From assembly GCF_004359215.1 (NCBI RefSeq), contig NC_090613.1, positions 2,538,356 through 2,602,355 on the forward strand: 64,000 nt of DNA. Direction: 5' to 3'. Below the pieces are notes generated by a model. That model searched no databases. It was not told the origin of the DNA and saw only the letters and a program-made list of their open reading frames with translations. A program made the translations under genes and the position numbers. Shown one piece after another: positions 7,392 through 59,960 of the stretch. The DNA is from Bremia lactucae (taxonomy: Eukaryota; Oomycota; Peronosporomycetes; Peronosporales; Peronosporaceae). Each line of letters begins with the position of its first letter. Within the stretch, counting starts at the first letter, position 1.

Positions 7392-8343
7392 NNNNNNNNN
7401 NNNNNNNNNNNNNNNNNNNNNNNNNNNNNNNNNNNNNNNNNNNNNNNNNNNNNNNNNNNNNNNNNNNNNNNNNNNNNNNNNNNNNNNNNNNNNNNNNNNN
7501 NNNNNNNNNNNNNNNNNNNNNNNNNNNNNNNNNNNNNNNNNNNNNNNNNNNNNNNNNNNNNNNNNNNNNNNNNNNNNNNNNNNNNNNNNNNNNNNNNNNN
7601 NNNNNNNNNNNNNNNNNNNNNNNNNNNNNNNNNNNNNNNNNNNNNNNNNNNNNNNNNNNNNNNNNNNNNNNNNNNNNNNNNNNNNNNNNNNNNNNNNNNN
7701 NNNNNNNNNNNNNNNNNNNNNNNNNNNNNNNNNNNNNNNNNNNNNNNNNNNNNNNNNNNNNNNNNNNNNNNNNNNNNNNNNNNNNNNNNNNNNNNNNNNN
7801 NNNNNNNNNNNNNNNNNNNNNNNNNNNNNNNNNNNNNNNNNNNNNNNNNNNNNNNNNNNNNNNNNNNNNNNNNNNNNNNNNNNNNNNNNNNNNNNNNNNN
7901 NNNNNNNNNNNNNNNNNNNNNNNNNNNNNNNNNNNNNNNNNNNNNNNNNNNNNNNNNNNNNNNNNNNNNNNNNNNNNNNNNNNNNNNNNNNNNNNNNNNN
8001 NNNNNNNNNNNNNNNNNNNNNNNNNNNNNNNNNNNNNNNNNNNNNNNNNNNNNNNNNNNNNNNNNNNNNNNNNNNNNNNNNNNNNNNNNNNNNNNNNNNN
8101 NNNNNNNNNNNNNNNNNNNNNNNNNNNNNNNNNNNNNNNNNNNNNNNNNNNNNNNNNNNNNNNNNNNNNNNNNNNNNNNNNNNNNNNNNNNNNNNNNNNN
8201 NNNNNNNNNNNNNNNNNNNNNNNNNNNNNNNNNNNNNNNNNNNNNNNNNNNNNNNNNNNNNNNNNNNNNNNNNNNNNNNNNNNNNNNNNNNNNNNNNNNN
8301 NNNNNNNNNNNNNNNNNNNNNNNNNNNNNNNNNNNNNNNNNNN
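7392..8343. other. Assembly gap (952 N)
   Basis: An uninterrupted run of N. Frames that cross it on the plus strand are artefacts. Because both flanks belong to the same 4.85-kb sequence, the true gap may be absent or negative. Confidence 0.98.
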
Positions 8344-27721: not shown

Positions 27722-29610
27722 ATGACGGCTAATAAGTCCGTTCGCGTCGCCCATGAGGCCGCAAAGCTGGCAGCTGCACTGATCCGTGCAGCTGCTGGTG
27801 ATGCAAATACTTCAGTAGACGCTAAAGCGTCTACTCTTGGGAATACGTCACCTCCTACTCTAATTAGAGGTGACTGGAATATGTCATCTGCTGGTGCCAT
27901 TGCAGGTGACAGTGACAAGTCACCGGCTTCACCAGTTGTAGGTGACTGGAATATGTCATCTGCTACACCAATTCTAGGTAACTGGAATATGTCATCTGTT
28001 ACTGCCATTGCAGGTGACGTTGACAAGTCACCGGCTACAGCAATTGTACGTGACGGGTCCAAGTCACCGACATCGCCCAACTCAGTGGTACCGTAAAGGC
28101 CGCCGGATCACTTGGGGCCGAGCTCGTTAAAATCTTTGGGTTCTAACGTAACAACTAAAGCGGTGTTGACGAGGTTGTTCGACGTGTTGGACCTCTTTGG
28201 GGGGTGTCGTCGGATGATGACTTCATGAGGATGATCACTCTGGTGAAGTGAGTATGCGTCTCTAGGAACTCAGTTGTCGCAAAGTAAGAGTGCTGGTGCT
28301 GGTGCTAGTTTGCATCACCTGGAAAGGAGTGATTCTAGGGATCGCTTCAAGGGCCAAGTTCACATTAACGATAACATGAGCCAACAGGAGAGAGATCGGA
28401 AGACATTGCGACTCGCTCCCGTAAAAAAGCCTTGGTTGCCCTCTAAAGGTAACCTAGCTCGTTGGTTTGTTATGACCAACGACCGATACCATATTCCGTT
28501 ATTCAACTCAACCAGGCTTCACAAGCCTGGTGAGGATGAAACGGAATTCTTCTTCGATGCCTTTTTCCGACATCGGTGGCAAAGGATGTAAAACCTTTGT
28601 TCGAAGCTTGTACAACATTTGTCCAGAATGTGCAAAGCATAGGGCGCGAGGCCTGGTACGACAAGCTCGATGTTTTCCGTAAACGGATCGAAAAAAGGAG
28701 CGTTGTTGTCGGTGCACGCTATAAGTTGCACCGTTTGTCTAGAGAGGCATGGATACCTTGCCTCCCATTGGGGGACTCATTGCCATGCTGTTTTAAGGGT
28801 GTAGATCATACCCCTAAGAAGTTATGTTCCCTTAAAGATCATCCCTTTAAGATCCTGTTGATGAACGCTCATCTCTTACGAATGCATCAAGGAATTGACA
28901 ACCTCCAATCCTTTAACGAGCGCGGAAGGCTTTCGTTCTGTGATGAACCCTCTGTCGAGGAGGATGGGTCTCGTCGTACTGTCGAAGCCCGAAACGTTCA
29001 CCATCAGTTGGGAACGAGATTCCCAACTATCATGCGATGGTGGATACCCTCGCCAACGAACCAGATAACTCGTTCGAATCCCCTTTGCCTCGCGGTGGTT
29101 CCAGAGGCGTTCATCAAGAAAACACTCGAATCCGTCAATGGATGTGGAGGGGGAGAAAAAATCGGGTTCGCCTCGTTTGACGAACCCGAATCAAGATCAT
29201 GATTTGGATCACATCCTTCACTATTTGAGGGAGGACATTGATCACGAGCAGTTCCGTCTCCGCGAGTTAGCGGTAACGGTTGATAATGTTTCTCGTCACC
29301 AGTTGAAAATTGTGCGCAATTTGCGATTGATCAACTGGCGAACGAAAGGACACAGCAGTCCCTTCCAAACGAGCTGGTGACATCGATAAACATTAACACG
29401 CATTAATATTATAGTCGTCCGAAGATCTCTTCCTTGATGGAAAACGTGGATCGTCTGGTTCATGAGAATCAGACTCTGTCCCGAGACCATTTGGCTTTCG
29501 CTAGGGGTCAGTTGGCCTTGACGCATGCCCTAGACCGTTCTAGTTTAATCCGGAATCGGAAGAAGCCTCGTACGGATGGTACGAGCGGAGACGCCCAACA
29601 TAAAACGTAG
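27722..29610 (+). pseudogene. aORF2 of D1: antisense ORF between pol and 3' LTR
   Basis: Runs opposite to D1 pol. It starts at ATG 27722 (MTANKSVRVAHEAAKLAAAL) and continues with repeats of the type GDWNMSSATPI / GDSDKSPASPV, an acidic-polar part, NDRYHIPLFNSTRLHKPGED (about 28473), REAWYDKLDVFRKRIEKRSV (about 28650), SFCDEPSVEEDGSRRTVEAR and a heptad-like C-terminus (about 29430-29540). The end TAG is at 29610. D4 (61155-62840) and D2 (54869-53645, minus) carry the same blocks in the same order. Function unknown. The copy has several frame breaks. No known domain is recognised. Confidence 0.6.
28985..29110 (-). pseudogene. D1 element: Pol chromodomain, antisense to aORF2
   Basis: The minus strand reads YLVRWRGYPPSHDSWESRSQ followed by LMVNVSGF. 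The pattern VRWxGY-x-x-x-xDSWEP is the chromodomain of chromovirus-type Ty3/gypsy Pol, which directs integration to chromatin. It is preceded by NHREAKGIR, as in D2 (53614). It lies wholly inside the aORF2 interval on the other strand. The Trp and Tyr cage-type residues are visible. Confidence 0.65.
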
Positions 29611-29833
29611 CGCGCGTACGCATACTACAGGCAGCACGATCCTGTACGCATTGCTTTGGCGATGTAATACACTTAGGGCCGACATGCCTGGGCAGTAATT
29701 TATTACTGCCTACATTCGTCACTACACGTTTTGGTAGGGTTGCGATAGACAGTAGGACTAGGTCGATAATATGAAATGCAAGAATGTTTGCTCTTCCATT
29801 TGTGTCAGAGTTTCGTTTCTGTCGAACCACCAC
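29540..29833 (-). pseudogene. D1 element: integrase C-terminal domain
   Basis: The 97-codon frame RQKRNSDTNGRANILAFHII ... VLLSIATLPKRVVTNVGSNK ... ATFYVGRLRSYHPYEASS is the SH3-like DNA-binding end of a gypsy integrase (HPxFYVGRLKxY motif). Its stop-proximal end overlaps the last codons of aORF2 on the opposite strand. Upstream (29834-30160) is a spacer of poor quality that also occurs in D4 (63189-63365). Confidence 0.65.
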
Positions 29834-30157
29834 ATCATCGATGGAATCCTGACAAAACGGACCACTGCCATCTAGCCAGCAGGAAATCCCCTGCTGACTC
29901 GGTTAAAATTTTATTTTCAGTGCGACTGGTTCGCACTGCGAAGATGTAAATCTTCTCCCTAGTTAGAGCATTATTGCTCTCACAAGTATCACTATTTTTG
30001 ATGCTGGGTCTTAAGCATCGTTATTAGAGTCAGCAATTGCATTTTTTCCACTTCAATGTTGATTAAATTAACATTGGTATCCTTCGCATGACCTAAGTTC
30101 TAATGCGTGTTGGGCAAGAGCTAAAAGATTCTTTGCTCGAGCGGGTCCCTCTCACCA

Positions 30158-31042
30158 TTGAATAAGATTAACTCTCAAGCAAGGTGGGTATACGTGAATG
30201 GCGTAAGCCGATCACGAAAACTGTGTATTCTTTGTCGAAGCATGCATGTCGAATTCTACCATCGGCTTGAACCTGATCCAACTATTAAAAGATTCCACGT
30301 ATCCGCGAAGTATCTCTTCGAGAATACGTATTACCCGCTCCGTCTGACCATCTGTTCATGGATGATCGGAAGTTGACATTTTCAACTGTGTTTGAAGTGA
30401 TTTGAACTCAGTTTGCCAAAATATCGCCGAGAATCTAGGGTCTCGATTTCAGACCAGTACGCGGAGAAAATCGTATCATCAAAGACACGAGCACAGCCTT
30501 TGGATGTGATCGACTCCGGTACTGCAGCAAGATTTACCATTCTGCTGAAACGATCAACAAAAACAAGAATACCAAGTATTCTTATGATCGTCGTCAAAAA
30601 TCCAATGACAAAGTCCATGATTACGGACTGCCAATACTGTGTTGGAACTGGTAGAAGTGTAACGGAGCACGAGCTGAAGCACTGGGCTTTACCCGTTGAC
30701 AACTCCACAGGCACGTATGTACCTGCGGACGAACTCATACTGGCGTGGCGAGTAGAAGTCACGACTTATCGTGAAATAAGTCTTCTCATGTACGCGATGA
30801 CCACTTATTCGTGCATCGTGGCAAATCATTATGGGTGGGGATGATGACACGAAGTGTGTCGCCAGCAATAGCAAGAAGATGCAGTTAACCATTGCGTGTA
30901 GTGTACCGATCTTTTGAGGATCGATACAATTCATATAAGGGTTGCTGGGATGAATTGCTACGGTAATCAACCAACCGTTTAAGAGCCTTTTCTTCTTGAT
31001 AAGCTCTTCTAACGTCGTCGAGTAATATTGACGACGGAACAA
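30158..31042 (-). pseudogene. D1 element: integrase zinc domain and catalytic core
   Basis: Frame 31042-30689 holds ICHDARISGHRVHEKTYFTI and PRQYEFVRRYIRACGV, the H-H-C part of the zinc domain; the final Cys is lost after GV. Frame 30762-30382 carries SVIMDFVIGF (first catalytic D) and VFVDRFSRMVNLAAVPESIT. The second D (SDRDPRF) is out of frame near 30460. The plus frame at 30413-30844 is its shadow. Multiple stops. Confidence 0.7.
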
Positions 31043-36519: not shown

Positions 36520-37450
36520 ATGCCACCTTAAAGGTGCAAAACTGGTAGGTCGTCTACAAAGACACCCCTCAACTACGCAAGAAGAGCACGCGCCGCATTA
36601 ACACGGCACCGGCGCCTGGTGCCTCAGTGGAAACGCCGACAGCTACTGATGCTGCTGTTGCACTTTTAAGTGGGCTGAATGATATATTGCACTTTCACAG
36701 TGAAGATGTAGATCCGTCGCTCATTGTTGAGTACAATGAGTCGACATCGCTGCCATCACCTGCTATACCATTTGAGACATAGCGGAGAGGCCTAAGCTGG
36801 TGCACCTTTTCATAGGCAGTCACCAAACCGGGCACGTCAATACGTAGGGTACGATCGGTTCCCAAGAGTCGAAATTCTTCGGGTATTCCCTCCAGTGGAC
36901 GAGGATTTGATATTTTAGCCTCGAGGAGCGGCGGTCAAGCAACCCTCCAACAAGGAAACATTTGATTCCCACCCGCAACCATCAGTGCTTGATAGGAGTG
37001 GCGATTTTACCTACCTAATAGCGGCTGTCTTACCCGCGTCCGTTCAGTCGCTGGCGTTAAGCTGAACAACGCTTTGGGGATCTCGAGTGTCAAGTCTTGC
37101 GACTGACCTCGGATCTTCAGGATGTCCGCGCAAAGGATCGTCCGGGTTATGAACGCCTAAAACTTCGTTTTGACATATTGGAAAAGAGATGTTGAAGGAC
37201 CCGCATTACGCGCGTGGTATCCCTCGCTCTCCGAGCCGCCGTTCATGTGAAAAGAGAAGGTTGGAGGCAAGTCTTTCGCTTTCCTCATCTCCCTCATATG
37301 TTTGACACTCGACCCAGAGTCGGCGTCACCATCTGACTCCTTACACTGATGGGGATATGTGAACTCATTTGGGTCTACATACCGTTTGGGAAGACCCACG
37401 TTTAAAACGGGGTGCGTCTTCATTCTTCATATACAGGGGAAGGGAGGGCC
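36520..37450 (+). pseudogene. aORF1 of C6: antisense ORF, partly deleted
   Basis: ATG at 36520 (MPP, then a stop where C3 has KRC) is followed by TKTPLNY and, in the next frame, TRRINTAPAPGASVETPTAT and SEDVDPSLIVEYNESTSLPS. After about 36778 some 1 kb found in C3 is missing. The distal part is still recognisable as MLKDPHYARGIPRSPSRRSC and RRHHLTPYTDG (37188-37350). Against C3, the stretch 36655-36760 differs mostly at third codon positions. Function unknown. Confidence 0.55.
36780..37000 (-). pseudogene. C6 element: Pol chromodomain remnant
   Basis: The minus strand has RIDVPGLVTAYEKVHQLRPL, the C-terminal helix region of the chromodomain, preceded by RLLEAKISNPRPLEG-type decayed sequence. 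It corresponds to 47864-48064 in C3. It overlaps the aORF1 interval on the other strand. Confidence 0.5.
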
Positions 37451-45350: not shown

Positions 45351-45788
45351 GTTTGTATCTAAAGTTTCCCTAATATTACACAGTCCCTGTGAAGTACACT
45401 TGGTGTACTTAAGGGGATGGTCAATTACTTGATTAAAGTAATTAGACCCATCTCTCGGTAATGGTTCACATTTGTGACCAACCCTTGTGTATGTGATCCA
45501 CATAGGTGCAGGGATGACGCCTAGCGTCATCTTTTACGCGAGATATCTAGAAAGATACGCTCGCGTTACATAGTAGTTTATCTACAGAGATGAAAATTTT
45601 GATAGGTAAGAATAGGTATTTATATTTTTTACGATTCAATATAAATCCGTCTGAAAACTACTTTCTATTTAGTAAGTGTAAGTGCTCACGAGGAGCCGGA
45701 TTACCGCTCCCGTGACGACACTTTACTAGAGCACTTAGTGTGTTGGGTGAGGTCGCTAAGGTGCCCACCACAACTACCTCACTGCACA
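45351..45788 (+). repeat. LTR-C copy, left arm of an LTR palindrome
   Basis: Plus-orientation LTR-C from the decayed start TGTTTGTATCTAAAG to CTCACTGCAC, lacking the last about 80 bases of the family consensus. It carries the dyad TGACGCCTAGCGTCA (about 45514-45528). It faces the 3' LTR of C3 head-on across a 54-base spacer (45789-45842) containing two direct copies of an AAGCG(A/G)TTA-ACCGTC segment. Confidence 0.7.
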
Positions 45789-45842
45789 GCGAGGAAGCGA
45801 TTACACCGTCATCGAGAAAGCGGTTAGACCGTCTTTTCTTGC

Positions 45843-46866
45843 GTGCAGTGAGGTAGTTGTGGTGGGCGCCTTAGCGACCTCACCCATCGCACTAAGTAAT
45901 CTACTTAAGTGTCGTCACGGGAGCGGTAATCCGGCTCCTCGTGCGCACTTACTAAGTAGGAAGTAGTTTTCAGACTGATTTATATTTAATCGTATGAAAG
46001 ATAAACACCTATTTACCAATCAAAAATGTCATCTCTGTAGATAACACTATTGTGTAACGCGAGCGTATCTTTCTAGGAACCTCGCGTAACGGATGACGCT
46101 GGATGAAGTGGGGCACAGTTCGGCTGGTAAACTGTCAATGTGGTACAATCCACATTATGGGTCAAATAACCTTATAATATCTAAATAGGGAATACCTCTA
46201 AAAACCCATTTATTGTGTGTAATACGAGTGGTTGCTACCAAATAGAGATCTGGTGGCCGAAATCTATTTTAAAGGTAATAAGTGTAAGATTGTACATTGA
46301 AAAAAATATAGTCTAGCTTTCTTTTGATCATGAAGTGTCCAGTGCCATCCTAAGGCTTGCGCTGCGACCGATGAGAGTAATTAGCGTTCCTAATGTATAA
46401 ACTCTCAGGCACTGGTTGCCACTTGGTTCTACGAACCACTGAGTCTCTTGAACTAAAATTCATTAAGCTCAACAAGTTTGTACACCTCACTGAGTTGTTA
46501 TACTTATAAGTTTATAGAACTAAGTGACTCTTTAAGCCTTAAATCTTCCTAGACTTTAGGAGCGAGGTAGATCCGCTACAGGTATGAGCTAAAATCCAAA
46601 GGCACATATTTTTGACCAATAGTTGCGGTGTGATTTTACGAAGCGTAGCTTATACGACTCTTTAAGTCGTTTCTTTAGTCCCGAGAATCTAAGTTCTAGG
46701 CGTCATCCCTCCCTATTCGAATGCACCTATGTGCATCACATACCAAGGGTTAGTCACAAATGTGAACCATACCCGAGTGGTGGGTTTAATTATTGTATGT
46801 AAGTAGTTGACCAACCGCTTAATTACCCCAAGTGTACTTAACGGGGACTGTGTAACATTAGGGCAA
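45843..46866 (-). repeat. LTR-C, 3' LTR of element C3 (right arm), interrupted
   Basis: Minus-orientation LTR-C. It occupies 46866-46696 and 46100-45843; between them lies an insertion holding LTR-B. The polypurine tract TTAAAGGAGGGTGGG is directly to the right (46867-46882), so this LTR ends the C3 3' half at 47011-50511. Re-inverting 18895-50511 places it in the same orientation as the 15104-15623 LTR, as required for one element. Confidence 0.75.
46104..46580 (+). repeat. Diverged solo LTR-B inside LTR-C
   Basis: Plus-orientation counterpart of 13839-14321, from about TGAAGTGGGGCAC to GATCCGCTACA. Shared words include TGGTACA, AACCCATTTAT, GGTGGCCGAAATCTATTTTA and TCTTTTGATC. It is clearly older than the B1 LTRs. 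About 115 bases (46581-46695) lie between its end and the resumption of LTR-C and match neither family. No clean target duplication is visible. Confidence 0.65.
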
Positions 46867-47010
46867 CTTTAGCCCGTTACACCCACCCTCCTTTAAGAAC
46901 ATATTTACATTTTAAATTTGTCAAAGAGGAGGGAGGACTTCGAGCTGCTTAACGCGCCGCCAGTTCTCTCTGTCACTCTAGCGACCTGTGTTACATACAC
47001 GGCCCCAAAG

Positions 47011-48506
47011 ATGCCACCTAAAAGATGTCACGTTGGTGGGTTGTCTGCGAAGACACCTCTCAACTTCGAGCAAAGTGCACGCGCCGCGTTAACACGCCGA
47101 CAGCTACTGCTGCTGTCGCGTTAACGAGGCTAAAGGATCCATCCCACTTTGACAGTGAGGATGTTGATCCGTCGCTCATTGTCGACTACAATGAGTCGAC
47201 ACCGTTCCGGTCACCTCATAATAGTAGTGATGCGGACAACGAGCTCATGAGGAAGGATGATGGCGCATTATTGCCCATCCAAACTTCTCTCATGGGTCAC
47301 AACATGGAGACAGCAACATTTACGAATGCTGTCTCGTCGTCTGCGCTGGATAGCACAGCGACCATTAATGAGAGCGCTGCCCATAAAGGCGCAGCTGCTT
47401 CTCCGTTAAGTAAAACCACAACGCCTTATGCTCAGACCATTATCCATAATGGTTCTGACCTAGAGAATTCCGAGCCTAAAGCTCCGCCGACGACATGTGA
47501 ATGTGCTCAGTCGGTGTCACAAGCCAGTCGTTTTGAGCGTGGCTATCTGACGGGTGGCATATCACGATGCGCCTCCATCTGAATGGCCTCGTTTAAACGG
47601 ACCAAAGCGTCGCTCCTAGAGCGCGCTATGCTAGACGCACATATATATTATGACATCTTAAAATCATGGAGGTTCAAGGAAAATCGCTTGGGCGAATTTT
47701 CGATCTCGGTCTTGTTGCGTTCAAATGAAATGCCCGACCAACACGATGCGGAATTCATGCGCCGCATTCATCCGCAATCCGATGCGAAAAACATCGGTCG
47801 CAGCGAGTTAATTTTGACCGCTTGCGTATGAAAGAAATCATGGGTGGTACTGTAACCCCTGTTTCATCTCACAACGCTGCTTCTGCTAGTCCATTTAAAC
47901 TTGCGAAGAAGCCTCAGCTGGTGCTCCGTTTCAAAGGCAGCCACCAAGCCGGGCACGTTAATACGTAGGATATCGATCTGATCCCAAGAGTCAAAACTCT
48001 TCGGGTGATCTCTCCATTGGACGAGGATCTGATACCTTTGCCTCGCGGAGCGGTGGGCGAGCAACCTTAAAACTAGGAAGCGTTGTTTCCCACCCGCATC
48101 TATCAGTGCAGGGGGAGCCCGATAGGAGTGGCGATCTCGCCGATCTACTCGCGGCTGCCTTACCTTCGTCCTATCAGTCGCATGCGCTAAGCGCTACTGA
48201 ATGACGTATTGTAATCTCGAGGGTCAATTCTCGCGATTAACCTCGGATCTTTGTGATGACCGAGCTAAAACTCGTCACGGTTATGAAAGCCTGAAGACTC
48301 GTCACGGTTATGAAAGCCTGAAGACTCGCTTGGACCTTTTTGAGCAGATGATGCTGAGGGATCCGCGTTACTCGCGTGATGTCCCTTGCCCTCCGAGTCC
48401 TGTTCGTGGTGGGAGGAGTCGGTCGGCTGATAGTTTTTCGCCTTCTCCGTCCCCCTCACCCGAACGACGCTCGACCCACAGTTGGCGTCACCATCGATCT
48501 CCTTAA
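47011..48506 (+). pseudogene. aORF1 of C3: antisense ORF between pol and 3' LTR
   Basis: Opposite to C3 pol. MPPKRCHVGGLSAKTPLNFE starts at 47011. After a frame shift, TATAAVALTRLKDPSHFDSE and DVDPSLIVDYNESTPFRS run open to 47582, then ERAMLDAHIYYDILKSWRFK, then RVNFDRLRMKEIMGGT (about 47808). Past the chromodomain overlap come FSRLTSDLCDDRAKTRHGYE (charged, coiled-coil-like), MMLRDPRYSRDVPCPPSPVR and an SR-like tail SADSFSPSPSPSPERRSTHS, ending at TAA about 48506. C5 and C6 share these blocks, with many synonymous differences (for example CGG/CGA, CTG/TTA, ACT/ACC near 48223). Function unknown. Confidence 0.6.
47864..48120 (-). pseudogene. C3 element: Pol chromodomain, antisense to aORF1
   Basis: Minus frame: ERLLAHRSARQRYQILVQWR, DHPKSFDSWDQIDILRINVP and GLVAAFETEHQLRLLRKFKW, preceded by PPALIDAGGKQRFLV (about 48110). 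VQWRxHPxSxDSWxxxxxL matches chromodomains of chromovirus Pol, which tether integration complexes to chromatin. The frame ends at 47864. The DNA is shared with aORF1 on the other strand. Confidence 0.7.
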
Positions 48507-48741
48507 TCGGATGGGGGTATGCGAATTTATTTGTGTCTACATACCGTTTCAGACGACCAACGTAAAATACGGGGTACGTCTAGGTAGCACAATAATTGCA
48601 TTCTTAGGTAGGGTAGCAGTACTTAATAGTACGTTTTCACCCACACTAAAGTGTTCAGTATTTTTGCGACCATTTCGGTCCGCATATTTGTTTCTTATTC
48701 TGTGCGCTTGCCATCGCGTCATGGAATTTTCGTGTTATGGC
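48507..48741 (-). pseudogene. C3 element: integrase C-terminal box
   Basis: Mixed minus frames read FYVGRLKRYVD-type residues near 48530-48570 and NILNTLVWVKTYY-type sequence near 48650, equivalent to 37380-37560 in C6 and 59930-60170 in C5. It links the catalytic integrase (48742 onward) to the Ser-rich tail that is antisense to the aORF1 C-terminus. Confidence 0.5.
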
Positions 48742-49662
48742 TTATCGCTCATCCACAAAGCGTTTAGCCTCCCTCACGCTTTTAGCATCAAACTCGCCAA
48801 TGACACCACCGAGAGGTCGGTCATAAGATGTAGTTTTATTGACCACTGCTAAACTGGCTGGGTCACTAGGGCAAGTTTCTGTCTTTGCGATGATACCCTC
48901 ATGGGTCATCGTCATATTAACGAAACTATGTCCCTCTTTCGCACCGAGCATAGTGAGGGCCCCTCCTCCATAACTAAGACCCGGGCTGCGCACAAACGAG
49001 ACTGGCGTCCGAGGATGGCGCAGTCCGTTAATATAAAACGAGGTCTTACCCGTACTGGCGTGGACACTGTTATTTATAGCGAGCTCCACAAAGGGCAATT
49101 TCTTCCACTCTTTGGGAGTTGCCATAGTGCGTAAGACATCCGCCACGAACCGATTGGCACATTCTGTTTGGTCATTGGTCTGGGGATAATCTGCAGTCGA
49201 CATGTGGAGCTTGCTACCTAGCAGCTCAAACACATGTCGCCAAAACACAGACGTAAAACGTGGATCCCGGTCCGATACTATGGACTCGGGCATCCCGTGG
49301 AGTCGGTATACATGGTCTAGGAACAAGAGAGCTACCTCCTTGTCTGTCATCGATGTTTTACATAATACTGAATGCACCATTTTGCTCAGGCTGTTTACAA
49401 TGACAACGAGCCCTGTCCGACCCTTATGGTCGGGCGACATGCCAAACATGAAGTCCAGACTTACTGACTTCCAACGGTGGATCGGAATCGGTAGCGGCTT
49501 CAGTGGTGAATAACTGGACGGTGCAGGCTTAATGCGCTGACACTGTTCGCAAGAGCGAATATAGGTGGCCACCCATCTATATAGGTGGGGCCACCAAAAT
49601 TGCTGACACTCGTAAGCATGCCTTTTCATGTACCAGATGCCCATTAGATGGCGCATCATCAT
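48742..49662 (-). CDS. C3 element: integrase (306-codon open frame)
   Basis: The longest informative frame of the C family. Zinc domain: HLMGIWYMKRHAYECQQFWW and TYIRSCEQCQRIKPAPSSYS, with H...H...CxxC. Core: SVSLDFMFGMSPDHKGRTGL (D), [20 protein letters not shown] (D) and TNDQTECANRFVADVLRTMA (E), so the D-D-E triad is complete. Then NNSVHASTGKTSFYINGLRH and the conserved spacer with PLGGVIGEFDAKSVREAKRF. It inserts element DNA into the genome. Relative to the family, the DGQTER box reads NDQTEC. Its RT partner is at 17982-18893, across the inversion. Confidence 0.8.
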   Translation of the reverse strand: MMMRHLMGIWYMKRHAYECQQFWWPHLYRWVATYIRSCEQCQRIKPAPSSYSPLKPLPIPIHRWKSVSLDFMFGMSPDHKGRTGLVVIVNSLSKMVHSVLCKTSMTDKEVALLFLDHVYRLHGMPESIVSDRDPRFTSVFWRHVFELLGSKLHMSTADYPQTNDQTECANRFVADVLRTMATPKEWKKLPFVELAINNSVHASTGKTSFYINGLRHPRTPVSFVRSPGLSYGGGALTMLGAKEGHSFVNMTMTHEGIIAKTETCPSDPASLAVVNKTTSYDRPLGGVIGEFDAKSVREAKRFVDER

Positions 49663-50511
49663 GGAGCTCGTGAAGGATCATCAGCTTGAGATCTGTGTCA
49701 TGAGGCACATAGATTCTCAAGGGATCACAAGGTAACAGCTGGTGCCATAATAGGCCATCGCTGTAGCTAAAGCAATTTAGCTTAGCTTTCAGGTGCGACG
49801 GAAGGGTTACCTTTCCTCCACCGAAGTGATCAAACAGCGCGACAATATTCGTCCTGACTGTAGCTCTCTTTTATTTCAGAGGCTATCGAGCTCGTTACTG
49901 GTGGGCCTTAACGGTTGCCATCTTTACCGGCTCAGATTGTGCTTTAGCACTCGACAACCTTTCCTGGTGTCTTATCTCGAAGTCTGGTTGCGCGATTAAG
50001 CGTCAGCCAAGACATTCGACTTACCCGGCTCGTATTCAACTTAGAAATTAAATTTTAGCGAAGAATGTAAACCAACTTGCCATTCTAGGTGAGAGGTGCA
50101 GTGAGTTTATTGCGGTCCGCAATGATGCTTGATCCGTTTAAACCACAAATGGTTCGGTGCCCAATAAGCGCACTCAAAACTTATAAAGTGCATACTTTAT
50201 TGAAAGTAGCTCCTTATCATGAACAGGGTAATTCATGTCCGCGGTTTTTAAAAGCCGGGACAGATAAGAGAAGATACGGTCAACGCCGTCGTCATCCTTC
50301 TGCATGAGCGCGCTGCCGATTGCAAAATTGCTTGCATCGCAGACAACGCCAAAGGGCTTATCCGTGTCTGGCAATGCCAAGACCGGTGCCTCTATAATAA
50401 ATCGCTTCACGGATGCAAATACATCTTCTTGTCCTTTTAATCACACCAATTCTTCGTCCTTTGTAAGGAGGTCAGACAAGGGCTTAGTTCGCTCAGCATG
50501 ATTCTTGCTAT
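49663..50511 (-). pseudogene. C3 element: RNase H (continuation of 17982-18893)
   Basis: Frame 50410-50174: MKRFIIEAPVLALPDTDKPF, GVVCDASNFAIGSALMQKDD and YPVHDKELLSIKYALYKF. It carries the first D and the E; the second D block (FVVxTDQAS) lies near 50130 in another frame. At its upstream end, 50511-50440 reads the RT-RNase H connection that continues C3 RT from 18893. Between 49663 and 50050 is decayed spacer and the start of the integrase zinc domain. Confidence 0.75.
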
Positions 50512-53559: not shown

Positions 53560-53826
53560 CCACATCCATTAAGGAATTCGAGTGGTGACAAGCGTTTTCC
53601 TGTTGAAAGCTTCTTGAACCATCGCGAGGTAAAGGGGGTTCGAATTAATCGCCTCGTTCGTTGGCGAGGGTATTCACCCTCGCAAGATAGGTGGGAACGT
53701 CGTTCCGAACTGATGTTGGACGTTCCGGGTCACGTCTTGCAGTACGACGAGACCCATCCTCCTCGACAGAAGGTTCTTCGGAGAACGAGCGCTTCCCGCG
53801 CTCGTAAAAGGTCTGGAGGTTCTTAA
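53560..53826 (+). pseudogene. D2 element: Pol chromodomain, antisense to aORF2
   Basis: Frame 53614-53826: MNHREVKGVRINRLVRWRGY, SPSQDRWERRSELMLDVPGH and VLQYDETHPPRQKVLRRTSA, ending at TAA 53826. VRWRGYxxxxDxWE and the DVPGxVxxYDExHP tail define the domain. It terminates Pol. The same DNA is read on the minus strand as aORF2 (53965-53645). Confidence 0.72.
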
Positions 53827-59048: not shown

Positions 59049-59960
59049 ATGTTGTGCAAAGCGTCAAAGATGGCTACTCTAGATGCACATAACTGTTATG
59101 ACATCTATAGTTTGTGGAAGGCTCAGGGGAAATTGCTTGGTCTTGTTTCCCCGATCTCGGTCGTGTTGCATTCAAATGAATCAACTGACAAATACGAAGC
59201 GGAATTCAGCCACATTTCAATGTGGCGAAACTCGGTCGCAAAGAATTAACTTCGCTCGCTTGCGTGTGAAACAAATCATGGGCGGTACTTTACCCCCTGT
59301 ACCTACTCATCTCGCCGCTCTTGCTAGTTTATACGGAACTAGCGGGGCGAAAGCTGGTGCTCCGTCTCATAAGCCCGGTACGTCGACGCGCAGCGCGTCG
59401 ACCGGTTCCCAAGACTAAAAACGCTTTGGTCATCCTCTCCACTGGACGAGGATTTGATGTTTCTGCTGCATGGAGCGGTGGGCAACCAACCTTTCAACAA
59501 GGAAGCGTTGGTTCCCAGCAGCATCCATCAGTGCAGGTGGCGCCCGATAGGGGGCGATTTCAATCACCTTCTCGCGACAGCCTATCCCGCATCTGTTCAG
59601 TCGCAGGCGCTACGCGCTGCTGAACGACGGATACGGGATATCGAAAGTTATATCTCTCGGCTGACTTCGGATCTTCACGATGTCCACGCGAAGGATCGCC
59701 AGGGTTGTCAAAGGCTGAAACTTCGGCTGGACTTCTTGTAAAAGTTGATGGTAAGGGATCCGCGTTATGCGCATGATTTTTCTCGCTCTCCATGTCCGTA
59801 TCGTGGTGGAGGAGCCATTCGGCTGACAGTTTTTCACCATCCCCGTCTCCCTCACCAGATCAACGCTCAACTCACAGTCGGCGTCACCATAGGTCTCCTC
59901 AAACGGAGATGGGAATCTGTGACCTCATTTGGGTCTACATACCGTTTCAGACGACCCACG
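59049..59960 (+). pseudogene. aORF1 of C5: antisense ORF fragment
   Basis: MATLDAHNCYDIYSLWKAQG (about 59070), then INFARLRVKQIMGGTLPPVP and THLAALASLYGTSG (about 59243-59342), open to TAA 59418. Then, in further frames, ERRIRDIESYISRLTSDLHD with VHAKDRQG (about 59622-59705), VRDPRYAHD and SADSFSPSPSPSPDQRSTHS / RRHHRSPQTEMGI (about 59820-59915). Compared with C3 (47640-48506) the codon differences are largely synonymous (AAT/AAC, TTT/TTC, GGT/GGC, CGG/CGA). N-terminal part missing. Function unknown. Confidence 0.55.
59339..59540 (-). pseudogene. C5 element: Pol chromodomain remnant
   Basis: The minus strand encodes QILVQWRG, SWEPVDALRVDVPGL and YETEHQLSPR across two frames; about ten bases are lost between DVPGL and YETE compared with C3. 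It sits antisense to the aORF1 segment 59243-59418 and just beyond it. Confidence 0.5.

What the first reader, a model, noticed from the sequence alone, without database searches (positions are those of the whole stretch)
47011..48506. Conserved ORF on the strand opposite pol in the C family (aORF1)
Between the pol stop and the 3' LTR the opposite strand carries an open-frame series with a hydrophilic N-terminus, a charged coiled-coil-like part and an SR-rich tail. It recurs in C6 (36520-37450) and C5 (59049-59960). In aligned codons the differences are mainly synonymous on this strand, for example TCT/TCG CGG/CGA CTG/TTA ACT/ACC in the RLTSDL block and GTC/GTT GCG/GCA GAG/GAA GTT/GTA around SEDVDPSLIV. 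The family's Gag lies elsewhere, beside the primer site (C4, 20384-21481), so aORF1 is an extra gene. Antisense additional ORFs are known from some plant Ty3/gypsy lineages; I know of none described in oomycetes.
Basis: partly seen in the sequence, partly recalled or inferred. Interest (0 to 1): 0.85.

Follow-up and report, generated by a model that had tools for sequence, protein, structure and literature searches.

The report
Antisense gene overlapping retrotransposon pol
A jumping gene of downy-mildew-type oomycetes carries an extra protein gene written backwards on the other DNA strand, partly on top of its own integration gene; such backward genes were known from some plant and fungal jumping genes, and this one shows signs of having been kept by selection.

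Summary
The core observation holds; two details do not. The window copy (47011-48506, +) is a decayed remnant, but the same genome has many copies, one (L028) with an uninterrupted 493-codon frame. Outside pol, 27 DNA-selected copies have 0.41 stops per 100 codons in this frame against 3.98-8.36 in the other five, and shared variants are enriched for synonymous changes. Relatives occur in Peronospora species and metagenomes. Corrections: pol continues through a linker and chromodomain, so the last ~185 aORF codons lie opposite pol; and differences between window copies are not mainly synonymous. The overlap is conserved in P. effusa; there the linker is better conserved as aORF, the chromodomain better as pol. 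The product (~490 aa) has a basic start, acidic disordered part, conserved block, long helix (probably coiled coil) and basic tail; no Pfam or fold match. Most likely it is a nuclear accessory regulator made from an antisense transcript starting near the 3' LTR; transcription, location and function are inferred. It is a new variant of a known kind (Grande, RIRE2, Retand, Boty); seven literature searches listed no oomycete case.

The parts
47011..48506 (+). aORF1, decayed copy (start codon, shifted pieces, S/R-rich end); antisense to pol
   Evidence: tblastn/blastn with the intact 493-codon frame of L028; pieces
47906..49239 (-). 3' end of pol: end of integrase core, SH3/GPY-F domain, linker, chromodomain
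   Evidence: tblastn of the L013 pol end; Pfam SH3_Tf2-1 9.6e-16 and Chromo 6.7e-07 on L013 pol
47906..48506 (.). antisense overlap of aORF (+) with pol linker plus chromodomain (-); pol codon position 3 faces aORF position 2, pol position 2 faces aORF position 3, position 1 faces position 1
   Evidence: phase worked out from L013 coordinates and supported by the phase scores
48742..49677 (-). longest open pol piece (integrase zinc-binding and core)
46882..47010 (+). aORF leader between 3' LTR and start codon; on the - strand its LTR end holds a purine-rich stretch (about 46882-46894), probably the polypurine tract
   Evidence: read from the sequence; the leader is open upstream of the start codon in L028
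46696..46883 (-). 3' LTR, part next to the internal region
   Evidence: blastn with the LTR of L028, 84%
45838..46100 (-). 3' LTR, distal part, separated from the former by about 595 nt
   Evidence: blastn with the LTR of L028, 85%
36520..37342 (+). aORF1 remnant in copy C6
35873..36388 (-). LTR of copy C6
59067..59899 (+). aORF1 remnant in copy C5
20384..21481 (+). gag-like region of copy C4, sense to pol; no Pfam match to the pieces scanned
   Evidence: a match to this region occurs with pol and aORF in L060

Best explanation
SHOWN: the region is a dead copy of a protein-coding accessory gene of a chromodomain-bearing Ty3/Gypsy-type LTR retrotransposon of oomycetes (host not named to me; inferred from its Peronospora and Phytophthora relatives). 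In the intact copy L028 the gene has 493 codons, starts about 130 nt from the inner edge of the 3' LTR on the strand opposite pol, runs about 308 codons through pol-free DNA and then about 185 codons opposite pol's chromodomain and linker. INFERRED: antisense transcription starting in or beside the 3' LTR makes its mRNA. The protein has a conserved basic start that reads like a nuclear localisation signal, a conserved and probably helical block, a long helix that probably forms a coiled coil, and a basic, mostly serine/arginine-rich tail. It goes to the nucleus as a dimer and regulates the element (transcription, RNA export or choice of chromatin), a role like that proposed for the plant antisense aORFs and for HBZ. 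My likelihoods: selected protein gene 0.93; overlap with pol a fixed feature of the family 0.9; antisense LTR-proximal transcription 0.75; nuclear regulator rather than structural or replication protein 0.5.
For: Intact frame in L028. Stops: outside pol 1.26 per copy in the aORF frame against 12.04-25.36 in the other five frames (47 copies); in 27 DNA-selected copies 0.41 per 100 codons against 3.98-8.36, and in the overlap 0.53 (aORF) and 0.87 (pol) against 3.47-6.32. ATG at the start in 49 of 55 copies. Variants shared by 4 or more of 64 copies against private ones, aORF frame: outside pol N/S 107/58 against 511/150, p=0.0013; overlap 70/37 against 319/103, p=0.037; at shared>=8 overlap 18/21, p=0.0002; the pol frame is not significant in these. 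Relatives: 35 proteins, the 11 named ones all Peronospora. Overlap conserved: P. effusa aORF P0008 and pol P0045 could be encoded by one antisense DNA in the same phase, score 92.0 against a maximum of 15.5 in 150 shuffles; linker alone 65.7 against 12.5 in 100. Traded constraint, G000 against P. effusa: linker zone aORF 77 of 123 identical and pol 56 of 136; chromodomain zone pol 39 of 60 and aORF 28 of 60. Protein character.
Against: No RNA or protein evidence could be sought. In the first 18 DNA-selected copies the test outside pol was not significant (25/9 against 260/77, p=0.67); with 27 copies p=0.0008 at shared>=3, 0.033 at >=4, 0.45 at >=6. In 47 copies position counts outside pol were not uneven at shared>=2 (p=0.19). 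In the chromodomain zone alone neither frame is significant (aORF p=0.55, pol p=0.21). A minus-strand frame whose third position falls on that of the aORF gives the same wobble signal (p=0.0009 outside pol); only its 14.6 stops per copy exclude it. In the 27-copy set at shared>=3 the pol frame too is significant in the overlap (p=0.023). For P0004 and P0002 with P0037 the linker alone does not beat shuffles (15.8 against 17.7; 13.3 against 16.0); P0009 with P0040 barely exceeds them (14.0 against 12.8). The test does not use a tree. The nuclear role rests on sequence character; there is no domain or fold match and no localisation predictor was run.
Confidence: 0.6

Rival explanations
1. The open frame is a by-product of pol: antisense frames of constrained coding DNA can stay open without being used.
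For: About 185 of 493 codons lie opposite pol.
Against: About 308 codons lie outside pol and are just as free of stops (0.41 per 100 codons). In the overlap the variants shared by 8 or more copies fall 5/11/23 on aORF positions 1/2/3; position 3 is pol position 2, the opposite of what pol alone would give. Between this genome and P. effusa the linker zone is better conserved as aORF than as pol.
Confidence: 0.03
2. The antisense transcript acts as RNA (for instance dsRNA feeding small-RNA silencing, or promoter interference) and the protein is incidental.
For: Small RNAs of both strands map along Gypsy elements in Phytophthora infestans (PMC3522703, passages); the review of plant aORFs keeps this option open (PMC7264820).
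Against: Frame-specific lack of stops and synonymous bias, and 41-64% protein identity in the five relatives that cover the whole query, point to selection on the protein. An added RNA role is not excluded.
Confidence: 0.08
3. The product is a structural or replication factor of the element (particle, chaperone, integrase partner), not a nuclear regulator.
For: A long helix and basic ends would also suit a nucleic-acid chaperone or assembly factor.
Against: The element has its own gag-like region in sense; expression from the opposite strand would separate the product from Gag-Pol in time and amount (inference).
Confidence: 0.25
4. A captured host gene or a nested foreign element that now lies inside the family.
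For: Signs of the overlapping aORF in only 10 of the 120 pol relatives tested.
Against: No Pfam family; the 103 matches are 67-100% identical where given, as copies of one family would be. No search was aimed at a host homologue and only 98 of 5960 candidates were scored, so capture of the first ~308 codons is not excluded. The fixed codon phase against pol suits growth in place for the 3' part.
Confidence: 0.15

Closest known systems
Antisense aORFs (aORF-3R) of plant Ty3/Gypsy elements: maize Grande gene23, rice RIRE2, Silene Retand ORF4, PvRetro13 (review PMC7264820, parts 1 and 2 of 3 read)
   Same: Antisense to gag-pol, on the 3' side of pol, conserved among copies, no clear relatives outside elements; nuclear location reported for the Grande product.
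   Different: Oomycete host; chromodomain element; about 185 codons overlap pol; no TRP28 (PF04195) match. The parts read do not mention overlap with pol.
Boty brtn antisense gene of Botrytis cinerea (Zhao et al. 2011; seen only as cited in PMC7264820 and PMC8365987)
   Same: Antisense extra gene in an LTR retrotransposon of a filamentous plant pathogen.
   Different: Fungal; its sequence was not compared here.
Retand TRP28 proteins (PMC11963269, abstract and passages)
   Same: [quoted passage not shown] proposed DNA binding and regulatory role.
   Different: Non-chromovirus lineage; PF04195 did not appear for six aORF proteins at E<=1 or for L028 at E<=5. In that paper's text 'overlap' does not occur.
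HBZ of HTLV-1 (antisense and nuclear: passage of PMC11963269; LTR promoter and leucine zipper recalled)
   Same: Antisense gene of a retroelement near the 3' LTR; nuclear protein with a C-terminal coiled coil.
   Different: No bZIP match here and no homology; a works-like comparison only.
Chronos oomycete Ty3/Gypsy elements (PMC5348765, section 5 and passages)
   Same: Oomycete elements with a chromodomain at the 3' end of pol.
   Different: Chronos has a second, archaeal-type RNase H; none was recognised here, though the copies looked at are broken. 'Antisense' and 'opposite' do not occur in that paper's text.

Membership tests
LTR retrotransposon antisense aORF (aORF-3R) | Opposite strand to gag and pol, on the 3' side of pol before the 3' LTR | tested here: met
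   L060: 5' LTR, gag-like region, pol, aORF antisense, 3' LTR fragment; it partly overlaps pol
LTR retrotransposon antisense aORF (aORF-3R) | Coding frame conserved as protein | tested here: met
   stops and shared variants in 47, 55 and 64 copies; relatives in other species
LTR retrotransposon antisense aORF (aORF-3R) | Present in most copies of the family | not tested
   copies were found by their aORF, so the share of all copies that carry it is unknown
LTR retrotransposon antisense aORF (aORF-3R) | Antisense transcript | not testable with these tools
   no RNA data
Retand TRP28 protein (PF04195) | TRP28 domain | tested here: not met
   no match for six proteins at E<=1 or L028 at E<=5; weak matches above about 0.1 are mostly dropped by the filters
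Chronos | Second, archaeal-type RNase H | tested here: inconclusive
   about 145 codons between RT_RNaseH and the integrase zinc domain in C4, read by eye in three broken frames; no such domain recognised
Chromovirus-type Ty3/Gypsy | Chromodomain after the integrase SH3/GPY-F domain | tested here: met
   L013 pol; P0037, P0045
Chromovirus-type Ty3/Gypsy | RT phylogeny within chromoviruses | not tested
   no tree was built
SR protein family | RRM domain plus RS domain | tested here: not met
   1-7 RS/SR dipeptides in tails of 32-44 aa; no RRM
HBZ-like bZIP | bZIP domain | tested here: not met
   no Pfam bZIP match

The most novel reading that the evidence does not exclude
An accessory gene of an LTR retrotransposon whose long-helix and S/R-tail half grew by overprinting pol's linker and chromodomain, in the antisense phase in which each protein's second codon position faces the other's third, so that two proteins share one DNA with traded constraint. 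It would give oomycete elements a nuclear antisense regulator that arose independently of plant aORFs and of retroviral HBZ.
Probability: 0.35. Interest if true: 0.8.

Novelty: new variant of a known kind. Interest (0 to 1): 0.62.

Why it matters
Antisense genes at the 3' end of LTR retrotransposons are known from plants and a fungus, but their function is unknown. A further case in oomycetes points to a repeated solution. The overlap with pol gives a natural test: within one DNA stretch the linker looks conserved mainly for the aORF and the chromodomain mainly for pol. Many copies, an intact frame and relatives in Peronospora species make transcription, location and effect on the element directly testable. 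The named relatives found here are listed only as unnamed or uncharacterised proteins.

Tried and rejected
By-product of pol: rejected because about 308 codons lie outside pol and because of the codon-position pattern in the overlap. Chronos membership: not supported, inconclusive. Divergent subfamilies: searches with P0008, P0004 and P0009 listed largely the same places; eight places fetched from those lists proved the same subfamily (84.5-92.8% to L028). An initiator-like motif in the aORF leader (TCACTCTAG exact in 29 of 43 copies) is no better conserved than its surroundings and is not claimed. Overlap test: P0009 with P0040, and the linker alone for P0004 and P0002 with P0037, not supported. 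The DNA behind the relatives in other species was out of reach of the tools I used.

Full report
1. What is in the window. On the + strand 47011-48506 lies an interrupted coding series in several pieces and more than one frame. It is the decayed copy of a frame that is whole elsewhere in the same genome: locus L028 has 493 codons from MPPKRG to a stop without interruption. Pol lies on the - strand (integrase piece 48742-49677), so the series is antisense. More diverged copies lie at 36520-37342 (C6) and 59067-59899 (C5), same strand.

2. Correction of the anatomy. In L013 the pol frame stays open through an SH3_Tf2-1 domain (9.6e-16), a linker of about 145 aa and a chromodomain (6.7e-07). The same protein matches the window down to 47906. 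The aORF, which ends at 48506, is therefore antisense to about 600 nt of pol. From the L013 coordinates position 1 of one codon faces position 1 of the other, pol position 3 faces aORF position 2 and pol position 2 faces aORF position 3. The inner edge of the 3' LTR is at about 46881, with a purine-rich stretch beside it on the - strand (read), about 130 nt from the aORF start codon. In copy L060 a 5' LTR, a gag-like region, pol, the aORF and a 3' LTR fragment occur in one element, part of which is withheld.

3. Is it a gene? The genome search scored 98 of 5960 candidates for the protein and 40 of 2610 for the DNA. From the 50 fetched loci, 47 copies were aligned after three duplicate places were dropped; eight more made 55 and nine more 64. 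Outside pol the aORF frame has 1.26 stops per copy against 12.04-25.36 in the other five frames; 16 of 47 copies have none there. Copies found by protein likeness favour open frames, so the count was repeated on the 27 copies whose loci came from the DNA search with the window copy (two places of that search are left out because the same places had entered through the protein search): 0.41 stops per 100 codons against 3.98-8.36. In the overlap both the aORF (0.53) and pol (0.87) are open, the other four frames are not (3.47-6.32). Lesions rise with private changes (55 copies: Spearman 0.43 for stops, 0.37 for frameshifts); 4 of 55 copies (L022, L028, L029, L035) show no stop or frameshift in the aligned part, only L028 over the whole length. 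Some copies with few private changes carry stops (L024 three; L011 and L012 two each, but these two are neighbours that resemble one another, which lowers their private count).

4. Selection. Private variants mostly arise after insertion and should be neutral; variants shared by several copies mostly arose while the element was alive. In 64 copies, outside pol, the aORF frame shows N/S 107/58 among variants shared by 4 or more against 511/150 private (p=0.0013); the pol-side frame there shows nothing (126/43 against 528/144, p=0.26). In the overlap the aORF frame gives 70/37 against 319/103 (p=0.037), and 18/21 at shared>=8 (p=0.0002); the pol frame is not significant (p=0.17 and 0.56). The run on 55 copies agrees (outside pol p=0.0003, overlap p=0.012); there the linker part of the overlap carries the signal (aORF at shared>=8 10/17 against 205/71, p=0.0002), while the chromodomain part shows none in either frame (aORF p=0.55, pol p=0.21). 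Position counts in 47 copies are even for private variants; outside pol they are not uneven at shared>=2 (p=0.19) but are at >=4 (p=0.012) and >=8 (p=0.013). Against: in the first 18 DNA-selected copies the part outside pol gave p=0.67; with 27 it gave p=0.0008 at shared>=3, 0.033 at >=4 and 0.45 at >=6. A minus-strand frame with the same wobble column gives the same signal and is excluded only by its stops. In the overlap at shared>=3 the pol frame also reaches p=0.023 in the 27-copy set. The private/shared division is a proxy and takes no account of the tree. In the window, target against L028 differs 35/16/46 by codon position outside pol, C6 27/39/49 and C5 40/37/49 in the overlap; non-synonymous single-change codons outnumber synonymous ones in each comparison.

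5. Other species. 35 proteins match the aORF profile; 11 are named: 9 Peronospora effusa, 1 P. farinosa, 1 P. matthiolae; 24 are metagenomic without a name. The five that cover the whole first query are 41-64% identical to it. The search reaches only proteins that share short words, so absence elsewhere is weak evidence. P0008 (P. effusa, 481 aa) and P0004 (480 aa) each stand for 19 sequences.

6. Is the overlap conserved? I asked whether the C-terminal half of an aORF protein and the end of a pol protein could be encoded by one antisense DNA, in each of three phases. The control pair from this genome scores 188.5 in the observed phase and 12.6 and 8.8 in the others. P. effusa P0008 with P0045 scores 92.0 against a maximum of 15.5 in 150 shuffles; without the last 65 pol residues (linker alone) 65.7 against 12.5 in 100. 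P0015 with P0045 scores 78.2 (maximum 15.8) and P0007 with P0045 89.0 (maximum 13.0), 30 shuffles each. P0004 and P0002 with P0037 score 27.5 and 30.7 (maxima 15.3 and 17.2), but their linkers alone do not beat shuffles (15.8 against 17.7; 13.3 against 16.0). P0009 with P0040 is not supported (14.0 against 12.8). Of 716 pol relatives 120 were listed; 10 of these 120 score above 35 with one of three aORFs and the next is 21.3 (ends of 320 residues, no shuffles, and some proteins lack the linker or chromodomain). So the other listed pols, Phytophthora ones included, give no clear sign of this aORF. Between this genome and P. effusa the linker zone is identical at 77 of 123 as aORF and 56 of 136 as pol, the chromodomain zone at 39 of 60 as pol and 28 of 60 as aORF; the sequences come from different copies, some perhaps decayed. 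Long linkers (64-215 aa) also occur in the eight of ten pols that give no such sign, so the linker need not owe its existence to the aORF.

7. The protein. In five full-length versions: basic start (net +5 to +9 in the first 30 residues), acidic stretch (net -8 to -12 in residues 31-110), and a basic tail of 32-44 residues with 1 to 7 RS/SR dipeptides, S/R-rich in L028, P0002 and P0008, poorly so in P0004 and P0007. A block around residues 150-290 holds the invariant columns of the 14- and 15-sequence alignments; in the 35-sequence alignment, which has many fragments, no column is invariant. AlphaFold2 gives helices in that block with moderate (P0004) or low (P0008) confidence, and one helix of 69 residues whose last 40-50 reach pLDDT above 90 in both; that it forms a coiled coil is inference. 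No Pfam family passes its cut-off and no fold matches. That the basic start is a nuclear localisation signal is my reading; no call tested it.

8. How it most likely works. Shown: a selected protein gene, antisense, overlapping pol. Inferred: an antisense transcript from the 3' LTR side and a nuclear, probably dimeric protein that regulates the element. The analogy to Grande gene23 and HBZ concerns way of working, not kinship.

9. Known or new. [quoted passage not shown] PMC11963269, abstract and passages; PMC8365987, passages). Seven searches (lists of 10-15 shown of up to 98 papers in five of them) showed no title or abstract start on such a gene in oomycetes. The oomycete element survey PMC5348765 (section 5 and passages) describes chromodomain elements without the word antisense. 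Subscription journals were not searched. The new points are the host group and the conserved overlap with the pol linker and chromodomain.

Noticed in passing
window 45359-46100: Two LTR-C pieces lie head to head (arms 45678-45787 and 45843-45952, 93% complementary) next to the target copy.
   Followed up: no
window 7392-8343: A run of N, which explains the open frames in several directions listed there.
   Followed up: yes
L021 3560-3801: A second piece of the pol end, repeated 901 nt further on, 94.6% identical.
   Followed up: no
L060 5339-5893 and 6068-6622: Two LTR copies in a row on the 5' side of the element.
   Followed up: no
window 53569-53757 and 28984-30391: Further chromodomain- and integrase-like pieces at lower identity to this pol, probably other families.
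   Followed up: no
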